A DNA stretch of 64,000 bases, taken from the NCBI RefSeq assembly GCF_015207505.1, contig NZ_JADEWT010000016.1:1-64000 (forward strand), in the 5' to 3' direction. The DNA is from Tychonema sp. LEGE 06208. Lineage in GTDB: Bacteria > Cyanobacteriota > Cyanobacteriia > Cyanobacteriales > Microcoleaceae. Positions within the stretch are counted from its first letter, which is position 1; every line of letters begins with the position of its first letter. Position numbers and translations under genes: made by a program. Shown here one piece after another: positions 18,322-34,334 of this stretch. The notes beneath the pieces are model-generated. The model saw only the letters and a program-made list of their open reading frames with translations. It searched no databases and was not told the DNA's origin.

Positions 18322-19218
18322 CTAAGGACTAATTCCCCAAAAAATGGCTTCTGGTGCGTCAATTATGCAGGAAGCTGTATCGGGAAAGGCTGCGGTGAGG
18401 TATTGCAATAACAAAGTTCGATCGCCCCCGGTGAGTGCAATTTTGCTATTGGGAAACAACCTCTGCCAATCTTCAATAAAATCCCTAACTCCTGCCAGAG
18501 TGGCATACACCACTCCGCTGTGAATTGCCCCAGCAGTATTTTTTGCCCAGCGGTGTGGCAGATTTTCTGGTAAACTAACTGAGGGCAATGCAGCGGTTTG
18601 TTTCCCTAGCGACGACAATTGCAAACCCAAACCGGGCAAGATAGCGCCCCCAACTAAATACCTATTGACATCTGCCCCAGTAAATGTTAGAGCTGTACCA
18701 GCATCTATAACTAAAACTGGCCAACCCAATTGGTTGCCAGCACCCAGTAAAGCCAAAGCTCTGTCAATTCCTAGAGTAGGATACAGTCCCCCGATCGGCA
18801 ACTGGTCTAAAGTAATAATTCGGACATTAGGATAACTCTGCCAGATTGCTGTTTGCTGGGGAACTACTGATGCCAAAACCAGAGGTGGCGCGATGAAAGA
18901 AACTGCGTCAGAATTAGAAACGGCGGGAGTATCATGAAGAAAAGGGAGATTTAGATCTGATATTTGGCCGATGGAACTCATGACTGTTTTTACCAAATAT
19001 TCGGCTTTTTCTGTCTCACAGAGCGTGGAAACAGCATCAGCTTTCAGATGCTCTGTATTCCATGTTTTTTCTATGGTTTTCCCAGCAAATAATCCCCAGT
19101 GGAGTCGCGAATTGCCGATCGCCAAAGCTATTTTAACCTCGTCTTTACCTGTGAATTGAGGTGTCAGGTTGCTTGTAGCAACTAGCGGGCGAAAATTATC
19201 GACAATTGAGTTTTTCAT
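18322..19218 (-). CDS. coaX: Type III pantothenate kinase
   Basis: Phosphorylates pantothenate, the first step of coenzyme A synthesis; type III enzymes are ASKHA-fold. The 298-residue protein shows the phosphate-1 motif ALAIGNSRLHWGLF near residue 32, QLPIGGLYPTLGIDRALALLGA, and the phosphate-2/metal motif VIDAGTALTFTG, then GGAILPGLGLQLSSLG. The phosphate-1 Asp of DIGNT is Ala-Ile-Gly-Asn-Ser here, a variant worth checking in close relatives. The gene stands alone. Confidence 0.92.
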   Translation of the reverse strand: MKNSIVDNFRPLVATSNLTPQFTGKDEVKIALAIGNSRLHWGLFAGKTIEKTWNTEHLKADAVSTLCETEKAEYLVKTVMSSIGQISDLNLPFLHDTPAVSNSDAVSFIAPPLVLASVVPQQTAIWQSYPNVRIITLDQLPIGGLYPTLGIDRALALLGAGNQLGWPVLVIDAGTALTFTGADVNRYLVGGAILPGLGLQLSSLGKQTAALPSVSLPENLPHRWAKNTAGAIHSGVVYATLAGVRDFIEDWQRLFPNSKIALTGGDRTLLLQYLTAAFPDTASCIIDAPEAIFWGISP

Positions 19219-19489: not shown

Positions 19490-19770
19490 CCACATTCTGC
19501 ACCCTCAACTGTCACAGAGTACAATTACTCAGAGCAATCGATTTTTAAAGTGATAAATTATGCCTCTCAAAAAACTTTTTTCCGTCTATAGCGGTTTTCA
19601 AGAAAGTGAGGTATACCCTAAGCCCACAGAGGTTTATGCCCTATCCTAGATAGTAGCTTTTATGAGAGATTGAAAGGCTATATATACGATAATAAAGTAT
19701 AATCTAGAGCTTAATTGTTCAATAAAAGTAAGTAAAAACCGATTGTGACAGTTGAGGGTGCGGAATGTGG
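19490..19770. mobile_element. MITE-like element with 27-bp terminal inverted repeats
   Basis: The left end starts CCACATTCTGCACCCTCAAC and continues TGTCACA (to 19516). The right end at 19744-19770 is its reverse complement with one mismatch. The outer bases CCACATTCYGCAC are shared with the insertion inside the sulfotransferase pseudogene at 23083-23250. It encodes nothing, so it is probably non-autonomous. GCGCTTAATTTGTATTT (from 19460) and ACGCTTAATTTATATTT (from 19776) lie just outside the two ends as an imperfect direct repeat. Confidence 0.8.
19587..19683 (+). mobile_element. TATAGC-TIR element, degenerate copy 2 (nested)
   Basis: Begins TATAGCGGTTTTCAAGAAAG and ends GAGAGATTGAAAGGCTATA, with one TATGCCCTAT remnant inside. 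It is nested within the 19490-19770 element, so it inserted after that one. Confidence 0.65.
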
Positions 19771-19955: not shown

Positions 19956-22055
19956 ATGTCTCTAAAAATACAACAACAAGAAAACCATTGCACGATCTTC
20001 ACTTCGCAATTGCCGGAAGCTGAAAATTGGAGGCAGGAAGAAGGTCTTTTGCAGCCGCAAATAGACGAACAAAAAGCCCTAATTGTGCAGATGCAGCAGC
20101 AAGTTCAGCTATCAAACCTGCTCAACCAAATTAATAACGAAATTCGCAGCACACTTGACATAGAAGAAATTTTGACATCTGCCTGCCGATTGCTGGGGCA
20201 AGTGCTGCAGTCCAGCCGCGCGAGTATTTTAGTCAAAGAATCAAGTACAGGAAATATTTTAGTCACGCGGGGAGAGTACAACGCGGGGGATTATCCGATC
20301 CAACTGGGCATGAAAGTACCGCTTGCTGACAACCCGCACTTGGAAAAAGTTATGTCTCAGCAGGAGTCGCTAGCAGTGACGAAGTTTCTCGATTTTCCGG
20401 GGTTGAACCCACAAACCAGGACAATTGCGGAAGCTTTGGAGATTAAGTCAATGCTGTCAGTAGCTACTCGCTATCAAGGTGAAGTCAATGGCATAATTGG
20501 CTTGCATCAGTGCGATCGCGAACGGGAATGGACAGATTGGGAAAGGCAACTTGTAGAAGGGGTAGCTTCTCAATTGGCGATCGCGATCAATCAAGCCAAA
20601 CTCTACAGGAAAACCCGCCGCCAAGCTGAACGAGAATCGCTGCTGCGACTGATCGGCAACCAAATTCGCAGTACGCTGGATCTGGGAACTATCCTGGAAA
20701 CAGCGGTGAGAGAAGTCCGCCAAATGTTGCAGTGCGATCGAGTAATTATCTACCAGTTTGAAGATAACTGGCAGGGAAAAGTTGTCGTTGAAGATATGAC
20801 GGTTCCTTGGCCTTCAATTTTAGGAGATATGGGGGCAGATAAGTGTTTCAGAGGAGATTACGCCGATCTTTACCAGCAAGGGCGAGTCAAAGCAATTAAT
20901 GATATTTTTAATTCCGGTTTAGAGCCTTGTCACGTTGATTTTTTAGACAGTTTGCAGGTAAAAGCTAATCTGATCGTACCGATTATTACATCCAGAAATG
21001 AAGAAAATTCGCTGTCTGCCGACGGAAGTTGTAATTTCAAATTTCCCGGTAGACTTTGGGGTTTGCTGATTGCTCACGAGTGCCGGGATACTCGCAACTG
21101 GCAGCGACAAGAAATGGAGTTGCTGTCGCAGCTAGCCGACCAAATGGCGATCGCGATTCAGCAAGCAGAACTTTACAGCCAAGTCCGAGAAGCTGCGGTC
21201 AAATCTCAAGCTCAAACCCAGCAACTGCAAGCAGCGCTGCAAGAATTGCGATCGGCACAGCAGCAATTAATTCAAACCGAAAAAATGTCTGGTTTGGGGC
21301 AAATGGTGGCCGGTATTGCTCACGAAATCAACAACGCCAACAATTTTATTCACGCCAATTTGTTTCACGCTAAAGAATATTTTAAAGTCTTAAACGAAGC
21401 TCTTGAATTCTGCGGAACAGCCTGCCCGGAAGCCGCGGAAGCACTTGTCAAAATCAATGAAGAACTAGAACTAGATTATGTTCGAGAAGACTTTGGCAAA
21501 CTGCTCAATTCCATGCGAGAAGGCAGCGGTAGGATTCGCTCAATCGTGACGACGCTGCGAAGTTTTTCTCGATTAGACGAGGCGGAATTTAAAGCGGTGG
21601 ATTTGCATGAAGGTTTGGACAGCAGTTTATTGATGCTGCAAAATAAGCTAAAAACCAAGATTAAAATCGAGAAAGAATACGGAAGTTTGCCGCTAGTTAA
21701 CTGTCATGCAGGCCAAATCAACCAAGTATTTTATAATTTGATTGACAATGCTTTAGATGCGATCGACTCTGCAGACAAACCGGGGGAATTAACAATCCGC
21801 AGTTGGCAAAGCGAGCCGGACTGGGTAGCAATTTCTGTCCGCGATACCGGAAATGGCATTCCTGCGGAAATTCAGGATAAGATTTTTGACCCATTTTTTA
21901 CTACTAAACCTGTCGGGAAAGGTACTGGTTTGGGACTTTCTGTGTGCTATCAGGTAGTTGTGCAAGCCCACGGCGGCCGGATTCGGTGCGTCAGTGAGGT
22001 TGGCGGAGGAACTGAGTTGATTGTTGAATTGCCGTTGACCAATCAGATGGGTTGA
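19956..22055 (+). CDS. Histidine kinase with GAF plus DXCF-type cyanobacteriochrome GAF domain
   Basis: A 699-residue soluble sensor kinase. After a short coiled region come GAF1 (about residues 50-220, no conserved Cys) and GAF2 (about 228-410). GAF2 contains GADKCFRGDY and EPCHVDFLDSLQVKANLIVP followed by LWGLLIAHECRDTRNW, the cyanobacteriochrome pattern. Cys325 of the CH motif is the expected bilin attachment residue, and Cys297 lies in an Asp-x-Cys-Phe motif exactly 28 residues before it, as in DXCF photoreceptors. The kinase core shows GIAHEINNANNFIHANL, NLIDNALDAI, DTGNGI and GTGLGLSV. A blue/green-type light sensor is likely; the absorption colour and response regulator are unknown. 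Confidence 0.88.
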   Translation: MSLKIQQQENHCTIFTSQLPEAENWRQEEGLLQPQIDEQKALIVQMQQQVQLSNLLNQINNEIRSTLDIEEILTSACRLLGQVLQSSRASILVKESSTGNILVTRGEYNAGDYPIQLGMKVPLADNPHLEKVMSQQESLAVTKFLDFPGLNPQTRTIAEALEIKSMLSVATRYQGEVNGIIGLHQCDREREWTDWERQLVEGVASQLAIAINQAKLYRKTRRQAERESLLRLIGNQIRSTLDLGTILETAVREVRQMLQCDRVIIYQFEDNWQGKVVVEDMTVPWPSILGDMGADKCFRGDYADLYQQGRVKAINDIFNSGLEPCHVDFLDSLQVKANLIVPIITSRNEENSLSADGSCNFKFPGRLWGLLIAHECRDTRNWQRQEMELLSQLADQMAIAIQQAELYSQVREAAVKSQAQTQQLQAALQELRSAQQQLIQTEKMSGLGQMVAGIAHEINNANNFIHANLFHAKEYFKVLNEALEFCGTACPEAAEALVKINEELELDYVREDFGKLLNSMREGSGRIRSIVTTLRSFSRLDEAEFKAVDLHEGLDSSLLMLQNKLKTKIKIEKEYGSLPLVNCHAGQINQVFYNLIDNALDAIDSADKPGELTIRSWQSEPDWVAISVRDTGNGIPAEIQDKIFDPFFTTKPVGKGTGLGLSVCYQVVVQAHGGRIRCVSEVGGGTELIVELPLTNQMG

Positions 22056-23880: not shown

Positions 23881-26800
23881 ATGACTAAGCAAATCATTTT
23901 CGTTGACTCCTCTGTACAAGATTATCAAAGCCTTGTTCAAAGTGCCGAGGGCGGTAAAGTTGTCATTTTAGATGACAAATCCAGCAAAATCGCGCAAATC
24001 ACTCAATCCTTAGCCGGAGAAAGTGATATTGAAGCATTGCACATCATTTCTCACGGGAATGAAGGGAGTATCACACTCGGTACTGAGGTACTTGATGAAA
24101 GTGCGATCGAAACTTTCCGCGATCGGCTAAAACAGTGGGGAAAAGCCTTAACTAAAACAGGCGACATCCTATTATATGGATGTAATGTTGCTGCCGGAGA
24201 AGTTGGTAAGAAATTTGTCAAAAAATTAAGTGAAATCACGGGTGCGGCTGTAGCGGCTTCTAATAACTTAACCGGTGCGGCGGCATTAGGTGGAGACTGG
24301 AGCTTAGAAGTGAGATTTGGGGAAATTGAAACCCAACCCCTGAATTTTGCCAACTATGGTTATACTTTGCCAGCTACCATCACCAATGTCACTTCAACTG
24401 CACCGAATGGTAATTATGTGGCAGGTCAAACTATTCCGATTACCGTTACCTTTAGCGAACCCGTCAACGTCTCCTTCGCCCCGGGCTTTCCAGGATTCAA
24501 TCTTAACTCAGGAGGAGTAGCAATTTATGCTAGTGGTGCAGGGACAAATACCCTCCTCTTTAACTACACCATAACTGGGGGTCAAGTCGCTGCAAACCTT
24601 GATTATAGCTCGACTTCTCTCAACGGTACGATAACTACAGCCTCCGATAATAGTCCTGCTACTTTAACGCTTCCCGTTACAGGTGGGGCTCTTGACTCCC
24701 TGGGTGACAATAAAGCCTTTGTCATCGCAGATGCAGTACCACCCACCATCACCAGTGTAACTGCCCCCGCCGCCGCCACTTACAAACTTGGAGATACACT
24801 CGACTTTGTGGCAACGTTCAGCGAACCTGTCACTGTCACAGCCGGTGCAACCTTACCCATTACTTTAGATAGTGGTGGGGTAACTGCTGTCTTAGTGGGT
24901 TCAGGAGCATTGTCTGCCACCCAAACCTTCCGTTATACTGTTGTAGCTCCCAACCTAGATACCGCTGGCGGCATCGCAGTGGGGACAGCCTTAACTGGAA
25001 CTATTACAGATGGTGCCGCTAATGCTGTTGCTAACCCTACCTTCACTGCACCCGTCACTCCAACGGTAAATGTGGATGGAGTAGTACCCACCATCACCAG
25101 TGTAACCGGACCGATTACACCTGGTACCGGCACACCCACCACCACCTACTTAGCTGGAAATGTCCTCGACTTCACGGCGACTTTTCTCGAACCAGTCACC
25201 ATCATAGGCGGTGCAAACTTACCCATCACTTTAGATACTGGGGGTACAGTCAATGCTACCTTAACGAGTGGAGGAGCATCATCTGCCACCCATACTTTCG
25301 GTTATACTGTTGTAGCTGGCAACGCAGATACCAATGGCATTGGAGTAGGGACAGCCTTAACATTACCTACCGGTGCGACTGTTAAAGATGCCGCAGGGAA
25401 TGATGCAACTCTTACCTTCACTCCACCCGCAACTCCAACGATAAACGTGGATGCAGTAGTACCTACAGTCACCAGCATCGTTCGTAAAACTCCTACAACA
25501 GAATCAATCCCTGGTACAACCACCGCCGTGACTTACACGGTGACATTTAGCGAACAGGTTAGTGGCCTAGATCCCGCTGATTTTACCGTTACTTCCGTCG
25601 GCGGTGTTACTAATACCGGTGTTGTCGTTTCGGCACCAACCGCCAGCAACAGTGTAGATGTTACGGTGAATGGCATTGCAGGTGGTGATGGTACTATCCG
25701 CTTAGACCTAGCTGCAGCTCCCACAGCGCTTGTTGATAATGCGGGTAATGCCGTCGCAACACCATTTAACACTGGGGACACCTACACGAGAGATGCAACA
25801 CCACCAATTCTCCAAAGCGTTACTTCTACCACCGCTACTGGCAGTTACAGCAACCTAGCTGCTGCTCCTGATATCAACGTTACTCTAACCTTCAGCGAAC
25901 CTGTCACATCAACGAGTGCCATAACTGTCGCCTTAAATAATGGTGGCACTGTCACTATTCCAGCTTTCGCCACCGCCGCTGCATCTGTTAGCGGCACTTA
26001 TACTCCACCAGACGGAGCCACTCCGGGAGTTGCAGGAGCCGGAGATATTCCCCTTCTTGACCTGTTCGCAACAACTCCCATAAATTTGGTTGGAGGTTTA
26101 GCAACCTTAACAGATGCTGCTGGCAATGCTATTACTTCTCTGACTCCTACTACGGTATCTTTAGCAGCTAATAACATAACGGTAGATACTAAGGAGCCAA
26201 CTCTTACCTTAACAACCGCAGCAGTAGCACCTGTCACCGGCCTGTTTAGCGTCACGGCTACCTTTGATGAGACTGTGGGAACAACTTTTGATGATACTGA
26301 TGTCACTTTAGGCAATGGTAGTATAAGTAACTTTGTTCCAAGTGCTACTACACCTGGACTCTACACCTTTGATGTCACACCTACAAATGATGGGCCTGTC
26401 ACCATTGATGTCGCTGCATCTAAAGCGACAGATGCAGCATTAAATCCCAATACAGCAGCGCAACTGCTGGTTAATGCGAACGTTCCACCTAAAGTCACCA
26501 GTATTAGCTCAACTTCCCCTGATGGTAGCTATGGGACTGGTAAAGTAATTCCGATTACCGTCACATTTACCGAACCCGTCGTCGTCACTGGTTCACCGAC
26601 GATCGCGCTCAACTCCGGGGGGACGGCTACCTATCGCACTGTGGGTGGTGGTAGCGGTACGAATACGCTCACCTTTGACTACACCGTAGCAGCAGGTCAA
26701 ACCATCGCTGACCTGGACTATAGCGCGATCGCTGCCCTTACCCTGAATGGCGGTACGATTAATGACGCAACGGTGACGACTAGCGCAGCGATACTCGATC

Positions 26801-29220
26801 TCCCTGCTCTGGGTGCTGCTAATTCCTTGGGTGTGAATAAAAACTTAGTCATTGACACCACCCCACCCAACGTTACGATTAACCAAGCTAGTAGCCAAGT
26901 CGATCCGACGAGCAATACCCTTATTAACTACACCGTCGTATTTGACCAAGAGGTGACGGGGTTTGATGCTACCGACATCACTTTCACTGGTATCACCGGG
27001 GCCGCCGCTACCGTAACAGGAGATGGTACAGGTCAAAATTACAACGTAGCCGTTACAGGTTTGACCCAACCGGGAGCATTGACTGCTACTATTGCCGCCA
27101 ATGCTGCTAACGATTTAGCCGGAAATGGTAATACAGTCAGTACCAGTACGGATAATTCTGTCACCTTTAATCCGGTTACTCCCTACGTCACCGCCATCAA
27201 CAAACTCGATCCAGATCCTACTGCTGCTACAACAGTTAATTATCAAGTCACCTTTAATGAATCTGTGACAGGAGTTGATGCTGCGGACTTCACCTTAGTA
27301 ACGAATGGTGTCACCGGCGCAACTATCGGTGCAATCACGGGTTCAGGCACAACCTATAATGTCCCAGTGAACACAGGGACTTTAGATGGCACGGTACAAC
27401 TGGATTTAGTCGATAATAACAGCATCCTTAATGCCCTGAATGCTCCTCTAGGTGGAGCGGCCCCGAACGATGGAAACTTTAAGGGACAGGTTTATACTGT
27501 TGGTAAAAACAGCGCTCCTGTTGTCGCCGTTGCGATTAACGATCAATCTGCGACGATCGATACGGGGTTTACTTTTACAATACCCACAGGTACGTTTACC
27601 GATCCTAACAACGACCCGTTAACTTACACCGCGACATTAGAAGGCGGAACACCGTTACCGACTTGGTTAACCTTTGATGCAGCAACAGGCATTTTTAGTG
27701 GCACACCTGCAACAGCAAATATTGGAAACCTGAAAGTTAATGTGGCTGCTTCCGACGGTCAAGCTTTTACGACCAATACTTTCCTGTTAACGGTATCCGA
27801 TAAACTCAATACTCCTCCTGTTGTCGCCGTTGCGCTCAACGATACGTCAGCGACAATCAATACGGCGTTTAGTTTTACAGTACCAACAACTACGTTTACG
27901 GATGCTGAAAATGACCCTTTGACTTACACCGCCACCCTAGAAGACGGAACAGCGTTACCGGGTTGGTTAACCTTTGATGCGACAACAGGCGTTTTTAGTG
28001 GCACACCTGCGGCTGCAAATGTCGGGAACTTAAAGGTAAAATTGACTGCGAATGACGGCAAAGCCTCTACGGGCAATACCTTTATCTTAACGGTATCCGA
28101 TCAACTCAATACTCCTCCTGTTGTTGCCAGTGCAACTATCGATAAGTCAACGACGAGCGGTGCGGTGTTTAGTTTTACAGTACCGGCCGGTACCTTTACG
28201 GATGCTGAAAATGACCCGTTGACTTACACTGCGACTCAAGAAAACGGCACGGCGTTACCGACTTGGTTAGCATTTGACGCGGCGACTCAGACTTTTAGTG
28301 GCACACCTGCGGCTGCAAATGTCGGAAACTTAAAGGTAAAATTGACTGCGAATGACGGGAAAGCCTCAACGAGCGATTTCTTCCAACTTGTCGTGAATGC
28401 GGCACCGACACCCCCGCAGACACCCGGACAGGGATCCTCGCCGACACCATTACCGATACCAACACCGGCACCATCGCCGGGGCCATCGCCGACACCAACA
28501 CCGGCACGCACATTAGTAATTAACACGCCGCCAATCAGTCTCATCGGTCGTGGCGAACCCACCGGTTTCCCACAAAATCAAGTAGTAGATGGTCAATATT
28601 TACTCACCGATGGAGATGATACTAGCATTCCATCATCAGCCTTTGGCAAACCAATCTTCGCGTTATCAGGTAATGATAACTTGACGGGAAGTTCTGGTAA
28701 TGACACGATTTTGGGCAACCAAGGTGCTGATATCATTAATGGTGCTGATGGTAACGATTCCTTATTTGGTGGGAAAGAGTCAGATCAATTATCAGGTGGC
28801 AATGGTAATGATTTCTTGAGTGGCAATAATGACAATGACACTCTCACCGGCGGTGCTGGTAATGACCTCTTACGCGGTGGTAAGGAAAATGATGTCTTGC
28901 TTGGCGGAGATGGGGATGATGAGTTGTGGGGCGATCGAGGTTTCGATGCTCTCACAGGTGGTGGAGGAAGGGACACCTTTGTATTACAATATACTGACAC
29001 TAACCCATCTCAAGCTGATGTGATTACTGATTTCAATTCTTCTGAGGATAAAATCAGATTGGTTGGTTTTAGTTTCAGTCAATTAACTTTTGAGTCAGTC
29101 AACGTCGTTTTAGATGGGGCGACAGCTTTAGCTTCAACGGCAATCAAGTCTGGTAATGACTACTTAGGAGTGGTTTATAATGTGAACCAATCTGCTCTTA
29201 ATAGCGGTTCTTTCTTGTAA
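23881..29220 (+). CDS. Large DUF4347 / Ig-like repeat / RTX surface or secreted protein
   Basis: A 1779-residue extracellular protein without an N-terminal signal peptide. Residues 1-165 form a DUF4347 domain with ALHIISHGNEGSI (His58) and ILLYGCNVAAG (Cys101), a layout like the His-Cys dyad of caspase-fold (clan CD) peptidases. Residues about 170-1200 are repeated bacterial Ig-like domains (ITSVT..., VTFSEPV). Residues 1210-1505 hold three putative-Ig (He_PIG) repeats of about 98 residues with LTYTATLE and GTPAAANVGNLKV. A Pro-rich linker (1508-1545) and about ten GGxGxDxLxG calcium-binding RTX nonapeptides (1593-1705) follow. The C-terminus (VITDFNSSEDKIRL) fits type I secretion. Likely an adhesin or sheath/biofilm protein; no secretion genes are adjacent. 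Confidence 0.9.
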   Translation: MTKQIIFVDSSVQDYQSLVQSAEGGKVVILDDKSSKIAQITQSLAGESDIEALHIISHGNEGSITLGTEVLDESAIETFRDRLKQWGKALTKTGDILLYGCNVAAGEVGKKFVKKLSEITGAAVAASNNLTGAAALGGDWSLEVRFGEIETQPLNFANYGYTLPATITNVTSTAPNGNYVAGQTIPITVTFSEPVNVSFAPGFPGFNLNSGGVAIYASGAGTNTLLFNYTITGGQVAANLDYSSTSLNGTITTASDNSPATLTLPVTGGALDSLGDNKAFVIADAVPPTITSVTAPAAATYKLGDTLDFVATFSEPVTVTAGATLPITLDSGGVTAVLVGSGALSATQTFRYTVVAPNLDTAGGIAVGTALTGTITDGAANAVANPTFTAPVTPTVNVDGVVPTITSVTGPITPGTGTPTTTYLAGNVLDFTATFLEPVTIIGGANLPITLDTGGTVNATLTSGGASSATHTFGYTVVAGNADTNGIGVGTALTLPTGATVKDAAGNDATLTFTPPATPTINVDAVVPTVTSIVRKTPTTESIPGTTTAVTYTVTFSEQVSGLDPADFTVTSVGGVTNTGVVVSAPTASNSVDVTVNGIAGGDGTIRLDLAAAPTALVDNAGNAVATPFNTGDTYTRDATPPILQSVTSTTATGSYSNLAAAPDINVTLTFSEPVTSTSAITVALNNGGTVTIPAFATAAASVSGTYTPPDGATPGVAGAGDIPLLDLFATTPINLVGGLATLTDAAGNAITSLTPTTVSLAANNITVDTKEPTLTLTTAAVAPVTGLFSVTATFDETVGTTFDDTDVTLGNGSISNFVPSATTPGLYTFDVTPTNDGPVTIDVAASKATDAALNPNTAAQLLVNANVPPKVTSISSTSPDGSYGTGKVIPITVTFTEPVVVTGSPTIALNSGGTATYRTVGGGSGTNTLTFDYTVAAGQTIADLDYSAIAALTLNGGTINDATVTTSAAILDLPALGAANSLGVNKNLVIDTTPPNVTINQASSQVDPTSNTLINYTVVFDQEVTGFDATDITFTGITGAAATVTGDGTGQNYNVAVTGLTQPGALTATIAANAANDLAGNGNTVSTSTDNSVTFNPVTPYVTAINKLDPDPTAATTVNYQVTFNESVTGVDAADFTLVTNGVTGATIGAITGSGTTYNVPVNTGTLDGTVQLDLVDNNSILNALNAPLGGAAPNDGNFKGQVYTVGKNSAPVVAVAINDQSATIDTGFTFTIPTGTFTDPNNDPLTYTATLEGGTPLPTWLTFDAATGIFSGTPATANIGNLKVNVAASDGQAFTTNTFLLTVSDKLNTPPVVAVALNDTSATINTAFSFTVPTTTFTDAENDPLTYTATLEDGTALPGWLTFDATTGVFSGTPAAANVGNLKVKLTANDGKASTGNTFILTVSDQLNTPPVVASATIDKSTTSGAVFSFTVPAGTFTDAENDPLTYTATQENGTALPTWLAFDAATQTFSGTPAAANVGNLKVKLTANDGKASTSDFFQLVVNAAPTPPQTPGQGSSPTPLPIPTPAPSPGPSPTPTPARTLVINTPPISLIGRGEPTGFPQNQVVDGQYLLTDGDDTSIPSSAFGKPIFALSGNDNLTGSSGNDTILGNQGADIINGADGNDSLFGGKESDQLSGGNGNDFLSGNNDNDTLTGGAGNDLLRGGKENDVLLGGDGDDELWGDRGFDALTGGGGRDTFVLQYTDTNPSQADVITDFNSSEDKIRLVGFSFSQLTFESVNVVLDGATALASTAIKSGNDYLGVVYNVNQSALNSGSFL

Positions 29221-29908: not shown

Positions 29909-31636
29909 ATGGTAGCCCTGACTGAACGAGTCCAACGCAGATTGACAGTGGAAAAAGTCGAAATTGCCCCTGATACAACGGCAATTCGATGCCTGGACTG
30001 GGATAGAGACCGCTTTGACATTGAATTCGGACTCCAAAACGGTACAACTTACAACTCATTCATCATTCGCGGCGAAAAAACCGCCCTCGTCGATACATCC
30101 CACGAGAAGTTTCGCCAGCAATATATGGAGACTCTGACGGGGGAAATTGACCCGAAACAAATTGATTATCTAATTATCAGTCACACCGAACCCGACCACA
30201 GCGGTTTAGTTAAAGATGTGTTGGCTTTGGCACCCCAAGCAATAGTCGTGGGGGCGAAAGTAGCAATTCAATTTTTAGAAAATCTCGTACACCAGCCTTT
30301 TGAGCGGCTTGTAGTCAAAAATGGCGACAAATTAGATTTAGGTAACGGCCACGTTATCGAATTTGTATCTGCGCCGAACCTGCACTGGCCTGATACTATT
30401 TTCAGCTACGACAGCAAAACTCAAGTGATCTTCACCTGCGATGCTTTCGGGATGCACTATTGTTCCGACAGTACCTACGATGACGATTTGGCAGCGGTTG
30501 AGGAAGATTATCACTTTTATTATGAGTGTTTGATGGCTCCCAATGCTCGATCGGTACTCAGCGCCATGAAGCGGATGGCAGAATTGGGAGAAATCGGTAC
30601 GGTGGCAACAGGTCACGGGCCACTGCTCAGGTACAATGTAGTTGAACTTACTGGACGTTACAAAAAGTGGAGCCAAGCCCAAGCTAAGGCAGAAACCACG
30701 GTAGCGGTATTTTACACTTCTGATTACGGATTTAGCGATCGGCTCAGTCAGGCGATCGCCCACGGAATCACCAAAACCGGTGTCGCCGTAGAAATGATGG
30801 ACTTGAAAACCGCCGACTTGCAAGAAGTCCGCGAACTTGTCGGTACTGCTGCGGGGATCGTGATTTGTTCGCCGCCTAGTAACGGCGCTGCTGCAGAAAA
30901 TGCCGAAGCAGCTATCAACACAATTTTAGTCGCAGCTAACAACAAACAATCCTTCGGTTTGTGCGAATCCGGCGGCGGCGATGACGCATCTATTTACCCG
31001 CTGCGAAACAAGTTCAAAGAATTGGGTTTGAAAGAAATATTTCCCAACATTTTGATCAAAGAAGCGCCGACGGAAGCAGTTTATCAACTTTGCGACGAAG
31101 CCGGCACCGACTTGGGACAGTGGTTGACGCGGGACAAGGCTGTCAAACAGATGAAATCCCTCGATAGCGACTTGGATAAAGCTTTGGGACGGATCAGCGG
31201 CGGACTGTACATTATTACCGCTCAAAAAGGCGCGGTTAGCAGTGCGATGTTAGCTTCTTGGGTGACGCAAGCGAGTTTTAAACCGTTGGGTTTAACTATA
31301 GCAGTTGCGAAGGATCGGGCGATCGAATCGATGATGCACGCGGGCGATAAATTTGTGCTCAACGTGCTCGAAGAAGGCAACTATCAAACCTTGATGAGGC
31401 ACTTTTTGAAGCGTTTTGCTCCTGGTGCCGATCGATTTGCCGGAGTTAAAACTCAACCAGCCAGCAACGGTTCTCCAATTTTGACAGATGCTTTGGCTTA
31501 CATGGAATGCGAAGTAGTCAGCCGGATGGAACTTTCGGATCATCATATCGTATATGCTACGGTCGATAGCGGTCGCGTATCCAACCCCGAGGCGCTGCCG
31601 GCAGTTCACCACCGCAAAGTCGGCAATCACTATTAG
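29909..31636 (+). CDS. flv3: Flavodiiron protein Flv3
   Basis: A-type flavodiiron protein of the Mehler-like reaction: with Flv1 it passes photosynthetic electrons to O2, making water, which protects photosystem I under fluctuating light. The 575 residues show a metallo-beta-lactamase domain (about 30-250) with the canonical diiron motif H92-x-E94-x-D96-H97 (SHTEPDHSG). A flavodoxin domain (about 255-400) and a C-terminal flavin-reductase domain (about 430-575, GRISGGLYIITAQKG ... ADRFAGVKT ... VHHRKVGNHY) follow. The canonical ligands and overall wording match cyanobacterial Flv3 rather than Flv4. Upstream of the VWA gene and flv1 on the same strand. Confidence 0.95.
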   Translation: MVALTERVQRRLTVEKVEIAPDTTAIRCLDWDRDRFDIEFGLQNGTTYNSFIIRGEKTALVDTSHEKFRQQYMETLTGEIDPKQIDYLIISHTEPDHSGLVKDVLALAPQAIVVGAKVAIQFLENLVHQPFERLVVKNGDKLDLGNGHVIEFVSAPNLHWPDTIFSYDSKTQVIFTCDAFGMHYCSDSTYDDDLAAVEEDYHFYYECLMAPNARSVLSAMKRMAELGEIGTVATGHGPLLRYNVVELTGRYKKWSQAQAKAETTVAVFYTSDYGFSDRLSQAIAHGITKTGVAVEMMDLKTADLQEVRELVGTAAGIVICSPPSNGAAAENAEAAINTILVAANNKQSFGLCESGGGDDASIYPLRNKFKELGLKEIFPNILIKEAPTEAVYQLCDEAGTDLGQWLTRDKAVKQMKSLDSDLDKALGRISGGLYIITAQKGAVSSAMLASWVTQASFKPLGLTIAVAKDRAIESMMHAGDKFVLNVLEEGNYQTLMRHFLKRFAPGADRFAGVKTQPASNGSPILTDALAYMECEVVSRMELSDHHIVYATVDSGRVSNPEALPAVHHRKVGNHY

Positions 31637-31966: not shown

Positions 31967-32596
31967 ATGCCCGCTAATCTTTTAGAAGACCGAGATTACA
32001 CAATTATTATTGCCAGAAGCGATGGCAGCCGAGACCCAAAACATCCTTTTTATGAGGAATGGGTAGAAGCACAGGCATCTCTGATCGACTTAGCAAAAAA
32101 ATGTCAAGAATTTGACAGTGACGGCATAACCGTCTATGAAGCTTCTACTCCTATGTGGAAGTATAAAAATTCTAATGTTGCCCGGTTGGCTGAAATTTTG
32201 CAGCGACAAAATACGGAACCTGATTCAGCAAAACCGACTGCAATTAATTTGGCAGAACCTCTAACCACAGCTTTTAGCGATTATTTTCAGCTCAAAACAA
32301 AGGCTGCTGGGAAACAAGGAGCAATAATTGTTGTAGTGCTAGATGAAAAACCAGAAAATGGCGCTGCTATCGCCGAAATTCTTGTAAGTGCGGCCAATAA
32401 AATAGATAGAGATGAAGAAATTGGTGTGAGCTTTATCCAAATTGGGGACGATTTGAAAACCCAGAAATTTCTAATTGATCTGGATACCAATTTACAGGTT
32501 CAAGGTGCCAAATTTGATATTGTAGATACCAAATTTTGGCACGAAATTAAAAGAAGTTCTGTTGTTCAGTTTCTCATAGGTGCAATAAATGACTAA
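31967..32596 (+). CDS. VWA-like protein with degenerate MIDAS, between flv3 and flv1
   Basis: A 209-residue protein starting at ATG 31967 (AGGGG eight bases upstream; the frame opens further to TTG 31961). The wording RDYTIII..., KKCQEFDSDGITVYEAS, AANKIDRDEEIGVSFIQIGDD and GAKFDIVDT is that of cyanobacterial von Willebrand A-domain proteins. The MIDAS DxSxS is A16-R-S18-D-G20, the conserved Thr position reads PTAINL, and the usual TDGEP reads LDEKPEN, so metal-dependent ligand binding is probably lost. Its stop overlaps the flv1 start by 8 bp, which argues for coupled translation and a role linked to the flavodiiron pair. Function unknown. Confidence 0.82.
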   Translation: MPANLLEDRDYTIIIARSDGSRDPKHPFYEEWVEAQASLIDLAKKCQEFDSDGITVYEASTPMWKYKNSNVARLAEILQRQNTEPDSAKPTAINLAEPLTTAFSDYFQLKTKAAGKQGAIIVVVLDEKPENGAAIAEILVSAANKIDRDEEIGVSFIQIGDDLKTQKFLIDLDTNLQVQGAKFDIVDTKFWHEIKRSSVVQFLIGAIND

Positions 32597-34334
32597 CGCT
32601 CTAGTTTCCAGAACCGCATCTGATGCCAAACCGCGCGACGTGCAGTTTGTCCAAATTGCTGCAGATACGGTAACAGTACGATCGCGCACTTGGGATAGAC
32701 TAAAATTTGAAGTAGAATATTCCCTGCAAAAGGGGACGACAGCAAACAGCTATATCATTCAAGCCGACAAAACAGCTTTGTTTGACCCGCCGGGGGAATC
32801 TTTCACCCAAAATTATCTGGATTCTTTGCAGCAACGGGTGGACTTGACAAAGCTAGATTATGTGATTTTGGGGCATTTCAACGCTAACAGAGCTGTCACA
32901 ATTACAGCTTTGTTAGAATTGGCTCCGCAACTAGCTTTTGTTTGTACAAATCCAGCGGCGATTGGTTTGCGAGGCGCTTTTCCCGAACAAGAATTAAACA
33001 TTATGATTGTGCGGGGAGAAGAAACTCTCGATTTAGGAAAAGGTCACAAATTAAAATTCATCGCGACTCCGACTCCCCGCTGGCCTGACGAACTTTGCAC
33101 CTACGATCCGCAAACTCGAATTGTGTTCACGGACAAATTTTTTGGTGCTCACGTTTGTGGCGACCAAGTATTCGATGAAGGGTGGAGCGTATATAGCGAA
33201 GACCGGCGCTATTATTACGATTCTCTGCACGCATCTCAGGCTAAACAAGTGCTGACGGCAATGGATAAATTAGTCGATTTACCAACAGCATTTTATGCTC
33301 CAGGCCACGGCCCAATCGTCCGTTACGGCCTCCACGAACTGAGCAATTTGTATCGGGAATGGAGCCAGCAACAAAATTCAAAAGACTTGACAGTTGCTCT
33401 ACTTTATGCTTCGGCTTACGGAAATACGGCTACTTTGGCGCAGGCGATCGCCAAAGGCATTACGAAAGCAGGCGTTGCTGTAGAAACGATCAACTGCGAA
33501 TTTGCCGAACCGGGAGAAATTAAAGAGGCGATCGAGAAATGCGCGGGATTTATCATCGGAACTCCGACGCTAGCAGGACACGCGCCGACGCAAATTCAAA
33601 CTGCTTTGGGAATTGTGCTCTCAACAGCGGCTAAGAGCAAATTAGCGGGGGTTTTCGGTTCCTTTGGCTGGAGTGGAGAGGCGATCGATTTAGTAGAAAA
33701 CAAGCTGAAAGATGCTGGCTACCGCATTGGATTTGAGCCGATTAGAGCGAAATTTAAGCCGACGGCGGCGACGATTTACGAGTGCAAAGAGGCGGGAACA
33801 GATTTTGCTCAAGCTTTGGTGCGATCGCAAAAATTGCGGGCACCGAAACCGCAGTTGACTGGTGGGAGCGATCGCACGGAACAAGCAGTGGGAAGATTAG
33901 TAGGTTCGCTGTGCGTAGTCTCGGCGAAGCGCGGAGATCTTACGAGTGCGATGCTGGCTTCGTGGGTATCGCAAGCCACGTTTAATCCCCCTGGCGTGAC
34001 GATTTCGGTGGCTAAAGATCGATCGATCGAAGCTTTGATGTACGCCGGAGATAAATTTGTGCTCAACATCTTAGCAGAAGGGCGACAGTTGCGGAAGTAT
34101 TTCATGAAAAACTTTGCTCCGGGAGAAGACAGATTTGCCGGAGTTGAAACGGTGGAAGCTAGCAACGGCTGTCCGGTTTTGACAGAAGCTTTAGCTTATC
34201 TCGAATGCGAAGTAATAAGTCGGATGGAATGCGGCGATCACTGGGTAGTTTATGCAGCGGTTGAAAACGGTCATTTGCTGAAAAATGACGGGGTAACAGC
34301 GGTGCACTACCGGAAATCGGGCAGTCATTATTAA
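32589..34334 (+). CDS. flv1: Flavodiiron protein Flv1
   Basis: The 581-residue partner of Flv3 with the same three-domain order. The diiron motif is non-canonical: GHFNANRAV keeps His96 but has Asn98, Asn100 and Arg101 where Flv3 has Glu, Asp and His. This is the hallmark of the Flv1/Flv2 class. EFSLQKGTTANSYII, LVGSLCVVSAKRGDLTSAML, EDRFAGVETVEASNG and the end VHYRKSGSHY support Flv1. It starts inside the last codons of the VWA gene. The Flv3-Flv1 heteromer is expected to work as one O2-reducing unit. Confidence 0.93.
   Translation: MTNALVSRTASDAKPRDVQFVQIAADTVTVRSRTWDRLKFEVEYSLQKGTTANSYIIQADKTALFDPPGESFTQNYLDSLQQRVDLTKLDYVILGHFNANRAVTITALLELAPQLAFVCTNPAAIGLRGAFPEQELNIMIVRGEETLDLGKGHKLKFIATPTPRWPDELCTYDPQTRIVFTDKFFGAHVCGDQVFDEGWSVYSEDRRYYYDSLHASQAKQVLTAMDKLVDLPTAFYAPGHGPIVRYGLHELSNLYREWSQQQNSKDLTVALLYASAYGNTATLAQAIAKGITKAGVAVETINCEFAEPGEIKEAIEKCAGFIIGTPTLAGHAPTQIQTALGIVLSTAAKSKLAGVFGSFGWSGEAIDLVENKLKDAGYRIGFEPIRAKFKPTAATIYECKEAGTDFAQALVRSQKLRAPKPQLTGGSDRTEQAVGRLVGSLCVVSAKRGDLTSAMLASWVSQATFNPPGVTISVAKDRSIEALMYAGDKFVLNILAEGRQLRKYFMKNFAPGEDRFAGVETVEASNGCPVLTEALAYLECEVISRMECGDHWVVYAAVENGHLLKNDGVTAVHYRKSGSHY

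What the first reader, a model, noticed from the sequence alone, without database searches (positions are those of the whole stretch)
19956..22055. Likely DXCF cyanobacteriochrome hidden in a GAF-GAF histidine kinase
GAF2 has the CH-motif Cys325 and an Asp-Lys-Cys297-Phe motif 28 residues earlier, the same spacing as in dual-cysteine DXCF photoreceptors, plus QVKANLIVP and LWGLLIAHEC. It may be a blue/green or similar two-colour light sensor driving a kinase, easily overlooked as a generic GAF kinase.
Basis: partly seen in the sequence, partly recalled or inferred. Interest (0 to 1): 0.7.

Follow-up and report, generated by a model that had tools for sequence, protein, structure and literature searches.

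The report
Blue/green light-sensing histidine kinase
This cyanobacterial gene almost certainly encodes a colour-sensing protein (a dual-cysteine "DXCF" cyanobacteriochrome) wired to a signalling kinase; it is a sound, previously unnamed member of a well-known photoreceptor class, and one of about twelve such light-sensing domains in the same genome.

Summary
ORF 19956-22055 (+, 699 aa) is GAF1-GAF2-histidine kinase. GAF2 carries D295-K-C297-F and C325-H, 28 residues apart, aligned column for column with DPCF and CH of TePixJ. GAF2's best solved relatives by sequence and by fold are cyanobacteriochrome (CBCR) GAFs. A maximum-likelihood tree puts it inside CBCRs, in a clade of 25 domains (bootstrap 98, SH-aLRT 99) in which C297, F298, C325 and H326 never vary. 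The genome encodes haem oxygenase and three bilin reductases. GAF1 lacks bilin cysteines.

Colour: the two positions whose Phe residues blue-shift red/green and teal-DXCF photoproducts are V276 and L333, the same pair as in blue/green TePixJ, SesA and SesC. I predict blue dark state, green photoproduct. This is inference; no spectrum exists.

Novelty is modest: DXCF CBCR kinases are textbook, and this genome has about twelve dual-Cys GAFs. The new part is that the GAF-GAF-HK subclade (20 domains, several families) holds none of the named receptors I could place (TePixJ, SesA/B/C, CikA, Cph2, and 40 GAFs of the RcaE genome). Its response regulator and output are unknown.

The parts
19956..22055 (+). 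GAF1-GAF2-histidine kinase gene, 699 aa
   Evidence: ORF and Pfam
20154..20591 (+). GAF1 (residues 67-212), no Cys at either bilin position; conserved in orthologs and cousins
   Evidence: Pfam; alignment; PDB search
20631..21191 (+). GAF2 (residues 226-412), DXCF cyanobacteriochrome sensor domain
   Evidence: PDB sequence search, trees, AlphaFold model, Foldseek
20838..20849 (+). D295-K296-C297-F298, DXCF motif, second Cys (expected C10 adduct)
   Evidence: aligned with DPCF of TePixJ; C297 and F298 invariant in 25/25 clade members
20928..20933 (+). C325-H326, canonical bilin-attachment Cys-His
   Evidence: aligned with CH of TePixJ, AnPixJg2, NpR6012g4; invariant 25/25
20781..20783 (+). V276, position of the beta2 'trapped-twist' Phe of red/green CBCRs
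   Evidence: alignment; role of the position from PMC5240096
20952..20954 (+). L333, position of the helix-alpha4 'trapped-twist' Phe
   Evidence: alignment; role of the position from PMC5240096
20988..21050 (+). variable surface loop (residues 345-365), about 18 aa longer than in TePixJ, holds non-conserved C359
   Evidence: 4-42 aa across the clade; low model confidence 58-59
21321..21323 (+). H456, expected phospho-acceptor His in GLGQMVAGIAHEINN
   Evidence: motif scan; no Pfam HisKA hit, so this rests on the H-box pattern
21714..22040 (+). HATPase_c kinase domain (residues 587-695) with DTGNG (630), FDPFF (644) and GKGTGLGL boxes
   Evidence: Pfam; motif scan

Best explanation
A light-colour-sensing histidine kinase. 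GAF2 attaches a phycocyanobilin-derived bilin to C325 (inferred) and, as in DXCF cyanobacteriochromes, converts it to phycoviolobilin (inferred). In the dark the second cysteine C297 adds to C10 of the bilin and gives a blue-absorbing state. Blue light isomerises the 15,16 bond, breaks that second bond and gives a green-absorbing state; green light reverses it (inferred from relatives). The shift is passed through the long helix at the end of GAF2 (residues 384-411 in the model) and the linker into the kinase, changing phosphorylation of H456 and of an unlinked response regulator (inferred). GAF1 is a non-bilin GAF that may add a second input. Shown here: sequence motifs, conservation, fold, phylogeny, kinase boxes and bilin-synthesis genes in the genome.
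For: Best solved relatives of GAF2 are CBCR GAFs: PPHK 8e-36, RcaE 2e-35, TePixJ 1e-32, against 8e-8 or weaker for canonical phytochromes. DKCF and EPCH align with TePixJ's DPCF and CH. All 22 orthologs shown keep both Cys. Clade of 25 at bootstrap 98 / SH-aLRT 99 with C297, F298, C325, H326 invariant. AlphaFold model pLDDT 84.6; Foldseek hits are CBCR GAFs, including the blue-absorbing form of TePixJ 4fof/4glq, TMt 0.83-0.90. Full-length HATPase with motif boxes. Haem oxygenase and three ferredoxin-dependent bilin reductases in the genome. V276 and L333 match TePixJ, SesA and SesC (SesA and SesC blue/green, PMC8846402), unlike SesB M/Y (blue/teal).
Against: No biochemical evidence. The X of DXCF is Lys, which none of the named references has at that position. 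The loop after beta-strand 'LIVPII' is longer than in characterised receptors, effect unknown. GAF1 or the output could dominate in vivo. The colour assignment rests on two positions and a handful of named sequences; Cph2 (V/Y) and PixJ1 (V/F) are also blue/green to my knowledge, so the rule is loose.
Confidence: 0.85

Rival explanations
1. A functional dual-Cys cyanobacteriochrome kinase with another colour pair: phycocyanobilin retained (blue/orange), a teal photoproduct, or a DpxA-like teal/yellow cycle without the C10 bond.
For: DXCF photoproducts range over teal, green, yellow and orange (PMC5240096). DpxA of F. diplosiphon is teal/yellow (PMC4937213). The query sits in a clade without any receptor of known colour among those I could place.
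Against: V276 and L333 match TePixJ, SesA and SesC, which are blue/green; the teal sensor SesB has Met and Tyr. None of the 40 GAF domains extracted from the genome carrying RcaE at 100% identity joins the GAF-GAF-HK subclade, so a DpxA ortholog is unlikely (DpxA itself could not be identified by name).
Confidence: 0.25
2. GAF2 has lost bilin binding and serves as a non-photic (redox, metal or small-molecule) or purely structural GAF, with the two cysteines kept for another purpose such as a disulphide.
For: Some GAFs in this genome have lost the canonical Cys, and no binding data exist.
Against: Both Cys plus F298, H326 and D261/R262/Y266 are invariant in 25 domains down to 42% identity; D295 is kept in 22/25. 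Loss of function should have let them drift, as C260 and C359 did.
Confidence: 0.05
3. An insert-Cys or three-cysteine receptor in which C359 of the long loop takes part in the photocycle.
For: C359 lies in an extra loop (residues 345-365), present in the window and some orthologs.
Against: C359 is in 1 of 25 clade members and absent in many close orthologs. The insert-Cys of known receptors lies upstream of the DXCF position (C713 against Y741 in Mbr3854g4, PMC5240096), a different place.
Confidence: 0.02

Closest known systems
TePixJ GAF (Thermosynechococcus, PDB 3vv4/4fof/4glq), type DXCF cyanobacteriochrome
   Same: Both chromophore Cys in the same alignment columns and at the same 28-residue spacing; CH motif; same fold (TMt 0.83-0.90); Val and Leu at the two tuning positions
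   Different: 41% identity; TePixJ is in a chemotaxis-type protein, not a histidine kinase; falls in a different clade; lacks the long loop
SesB/Tlr1999 GAF (blue/teal; identified here by genome position and GAF-GGDEF-EAL architecture, L123)
   Same: 49% identity, among the highest of the named receptors; DXCF (DSCF) plus canonical Cys
   Different: CY instead of CH, Met/Tyr at the tuning positions, c-di-GMP enzyme output; not in the query clade
PPHK dual-sensor histidine kinase (PDB 6oap) and RcaE (8k9o)
   Same: Best sequence hits, PPHK also the best fold hit; CBCR GAF feeding a histidine kinase
   Different: Neither has the DXCF Cys: PPHK has DQYF, RcaE has QEVF with a CL motif
DpxA of Fremyella diplosiphon (teal/yellow cyanobacteriochrome kinase controlling phycoerythrin, PMC4937213)
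   Same: Same idea: CBCR GAF driving a histidine kinase
   Different: Sequence not available by name; no GAF read from the RcaE-bearing genome falls in the query's GAF-GAF-HK subclade
Unnamed GAF-GAF-HK proteins L125, L148, L149, L153 (660-720 aa, several cyanobacterial families)
   Same: Same architecture and motifs; 54-65% identity over the protein, same subclade
   Different: Loop length 4-42 aa; G066-type relatives have a third GAF

Membership tests
DXCF cyanobacteriochrome | Canonical bilin Cys in the CH/CY motif | tested here: met
   C325-H326 aligned with TePixJ and AnPixJg2; invariant 25/25
DXCF cyanobacteriochrome | Second Cys in Asp-Xaa-Cys-Phe | tested here: met
   D295-K-C297-F298 aligned with DPCF of TePixJ; Cys and Phe 25/25, Asp 22/25 in the clade
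DXCF cyanobacteriochrome | Phylogenetic placement among CBCR GAF domains, apart from phytochrome-type GAFs | tested here: met
   85 CBCR-type rows split from 6 phytochrome-type GAFs at 96/93; query within; repeated with 120 rows
DXCF cyanobacteriochrome | CBCR GAF fold | tested here: met
   AlphaFold pLDDT 84.6, Foldseek top hits CBCR GAFs
DXCF cyanobacteriochrome | Cyanobacterial host with bilin precursor synthesis | tested here: met
   Orthologs in Microcoleus/Tychonema/Oscillatoria; haem oxygenase and 3 bilin reductases
DXCF cyanobacteriochrome | Covalent bilin, PCB-to-PVB conversion, reversible C10 adduct, photoconversion | not testable with these tools
   Needs expression and spectroscopy
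Extended red/green (XRG) cyanobacteriochrome | WXDXXL motif without the second Cys | tested here: not met
   Query has G293-A-D-K-C-F; XRG references have WEDTHL; separate clade
Green/red protochromic (RcaE/CcaS) cyanobacteriochrome | No DXCF Cys, CL motif | tested here: not met
   RcaE QEVF/CL against query DKCF/CH; separate clade
Insert-Cys cyanobacteriochrome | Second Cys in the insert upstream of the DXCF position | tested here: not met
   C359 is downstream of C325 and not conserved; position of known insert-Cys from PMC5240096
Histidine kinase | H-box plus HATPase with N, G1, F, G2 boxes | tested here: met
   HATPase_c 5e-28; AHEINN at 455, DTGNG 630, FDPF 644, GKGTGLGL 654. Pfam HisKA not hit; H-box by pattern only

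The most novel reading that the evidence does not exclude
GAF2 represents a spectrally uncharacterised DXCF lineage (GAF-GAF-HK) whose kinase sits beside a flavodiiron gene pair in Microcoleaceae and gates that electron-sink (photoprotection) system by blue/green light ratio.
Probability: 0.06. Interest if true: 0.5.

Novelty: new member of a known kind. Interest (0 to 1): 0.22.

Why it matters
It adds a whole subclade of probable blue/green light-sensing kinases, conserved across several cyanobacterial families, that can be tested by a routine E. coli expression experiment. The mat-forming and freshwater Microcoleus group has few receptors with known targets. The mechanism itself is already established.

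Tried and rejected
Third-Cys or insert-Cys idea: rejected, C359 is not conserved. GAF1 as a second bilin domain: rejected, no Cys at either position; weak similarity to CBCR GAFs only. DpxA ortholog: not supported. Response-regulator partner next door: no response regulator was recognised beside the gene in the window, and none stood out in the cousin neighbourhoods, which were compared only with window genes and not annotated. Flavodiiron link: downstream pair in 12 of 27 ortholog loci and in G129 and G099, but shared ancestry explains it, the window has a 5.3-kb gene in between, and in Synechocystis flavodiiron genes did not respond to blue, orange or red light (PMC7496141). Labelling error of mine: row 'REF_Anacy2551g3_6oap' is really PPHK; the far-red receptor is 6uv8; corrected. 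Key subscription papers (Rockwell 2012/2015, Wiltbank and Kehoe 2016, Cho 2015) are not held, so I could not exclude that a member of this clade has been measured.

Full report
What was checked. ORF 19956-22055 on the + strand encodes 699 aa. Pfam finds two GAF domains (67-212 and 242-401) and HATPase_c (587-695). The host is a Microcoleaceae cyanobacterium by its relatives: the nearest orthologs are Microcoleus, Lyngbya and Tychonema records at 86-93% identity.

Is the motif real? phmmer against the PDB returns CBCR GAFs first: 6oap (PPHK) 8e-36, 8k9o (RcaE) 2e-35, 3vv4 (TePixJ) 1e-32; canonical phytochromes come at about 1e-7 or weaker. In the alignment, DKCF falls on TePixJ DPCF and EPCH on TECH. 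All 22 orthologs displayed keep DKCF and the canonical Cys. In a 25-member clade going down to 42% identity, only 27 of 187 columns are invariant, and C297, F298, C325 and H326 are among them; C260 is in 8 of 25 and C359 in 1 of 25.

Phylogeny. A first tree of 74 GAF domains and a careful one of 91 place GAF2 among CBCR GAFs, apart from phytochrome-type GAFs (96/93). It sits in a clade of 25 (98/99). Named or identifiable references lie outside: TePixJ; from the genome with 100% TePixJ identity, SesA, SesB, SesC and CikA, recognised by position, length and domains (identities partly from my knowledge of the T. elongatus gene order); from a Synechocystis genome, Cph2-, UirS-, CcaS- and slr1393-like proteins; RcaE, AnPixJg2, NpR6012g4 and PPHK from the PDB. 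When 40 GAF domains of the genome that carries RcaE at 100% identity are added, two fall in the sister group (L215, L226) and one deeper in the clade (L233), none in the 20-member subclade of the query (SH-aLRT 94). Only the best 30 loci of that genome were read. The bootstrap had not fully settled. The subclade is typified by GAF1-GAF2-HK (L125, L148, L149, L153) or GAF1-GAF2-GAF3-HK (L120, L150, L151) proteins.

Structure. AlphaFold2 on 40 aligned domains gave pLDDT 84.6, pTM 0.82, with a weak stretch in the loop at residues 345-365. Foldseek returns CBCR GAFs throughout the top ranks, including the blue-absorbing state of TePixJ (4fof TMt 0.83, 4glq 0.90).

Colour. [quoted passage not shown] The corresponding residues of the query are V276 and L333. 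TePixJ, SesA and SesC also have Val and Leu; SesB has Met and Tyr. SesA and SesC are blue/green and SesB blue/teal, all with phycoviolobilin (PMC8846402). I therefore favour blue dark state and green photoproduct, about 0.65 given that the domain binds bilin. Typical DXCF domains convert PCB to PVB, and the second Cys bonds C10 in the blue dark state (PMC11284453).

Chromophore supply and output. The genome has one haem oxygenase and three ferredoxin-dependent bilin reductases, two of them adjacent, which suggests PcyA plus PebA/PebB (inference). The kinase has an H-box at H456, found by pattern and not by Pfam HisKA, and the ATP-binding boxes. No response regulator was recognised next to the gene in the window, so the kinase is an orphan and its target is unknown.

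Context. The gene diverges from coaX (type III pantothenate kinase); this pairing is kept in Microcoleaceae and in more distant G066, G157 and G129. Downstream lies a flavodiiron gene pair in 12 of 27 ortholog loci, in G129 and G099, and in the window beyond a 1779-aa repeat protein. This is a lead, not evidence of regulation. Against it, flavodiiron genes of Synechocystis did not respond to light colour (PMC7496141).

How ordinary is it? The same genome has about twelve GAF domains with both cysteines and 97 Pfam GAF hits. DXCF CBCR kinases are a known class. I file this as a new member of a known kind, with the modest addition that its GAF-GAF-HK subclade seems not to contain a characterised receptor, a statement limited by the references I could place.

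Noticed in passing
19490-19770: About 285-bp element with 27-nt, 96% complementary terminal inverted repeats inserted upstream of the kinase gene; in the 13 ortholog loci compared the flanks lie much closer together and the element gives no match, while about 180 bp next to the start codon are conserved. Looks like a miniature inverted-repeat element.
   Followed up: partly
29909-31636 and 32589-34334: Two flavodiiron proteins (ODP/flavodoxin/flavin reductase domains) with a 211-aa ORF between them, downstream of the kinase in many relatives.
   Followed up: partly
18322-19218 (-): Type III pantothenate kinase, divergent neighbour kept across several families.
   Followed up: partly
L091:1504-2010:-, L124, L156, L095: Sister CBCR-type GAFs keep the second Cys but vary the Asp (QECF, PECF; L095 keeps DECF); most sit in proteins with an N-terminal phytochrome-type GAF.
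   Followed up: partly
L022:8331-11456 (-): In Tychonema BBK16 a second multi-GAF CBCR kinase (1042 aa) is convergent with the ortholog.
   Followed up: no
23881-29220: 1779-aa protein with repeated domains and a Ca-binding-type repeat C-terminus, inserted between the kinase and the flavodiiron pair in this genome.
   Followed up: no
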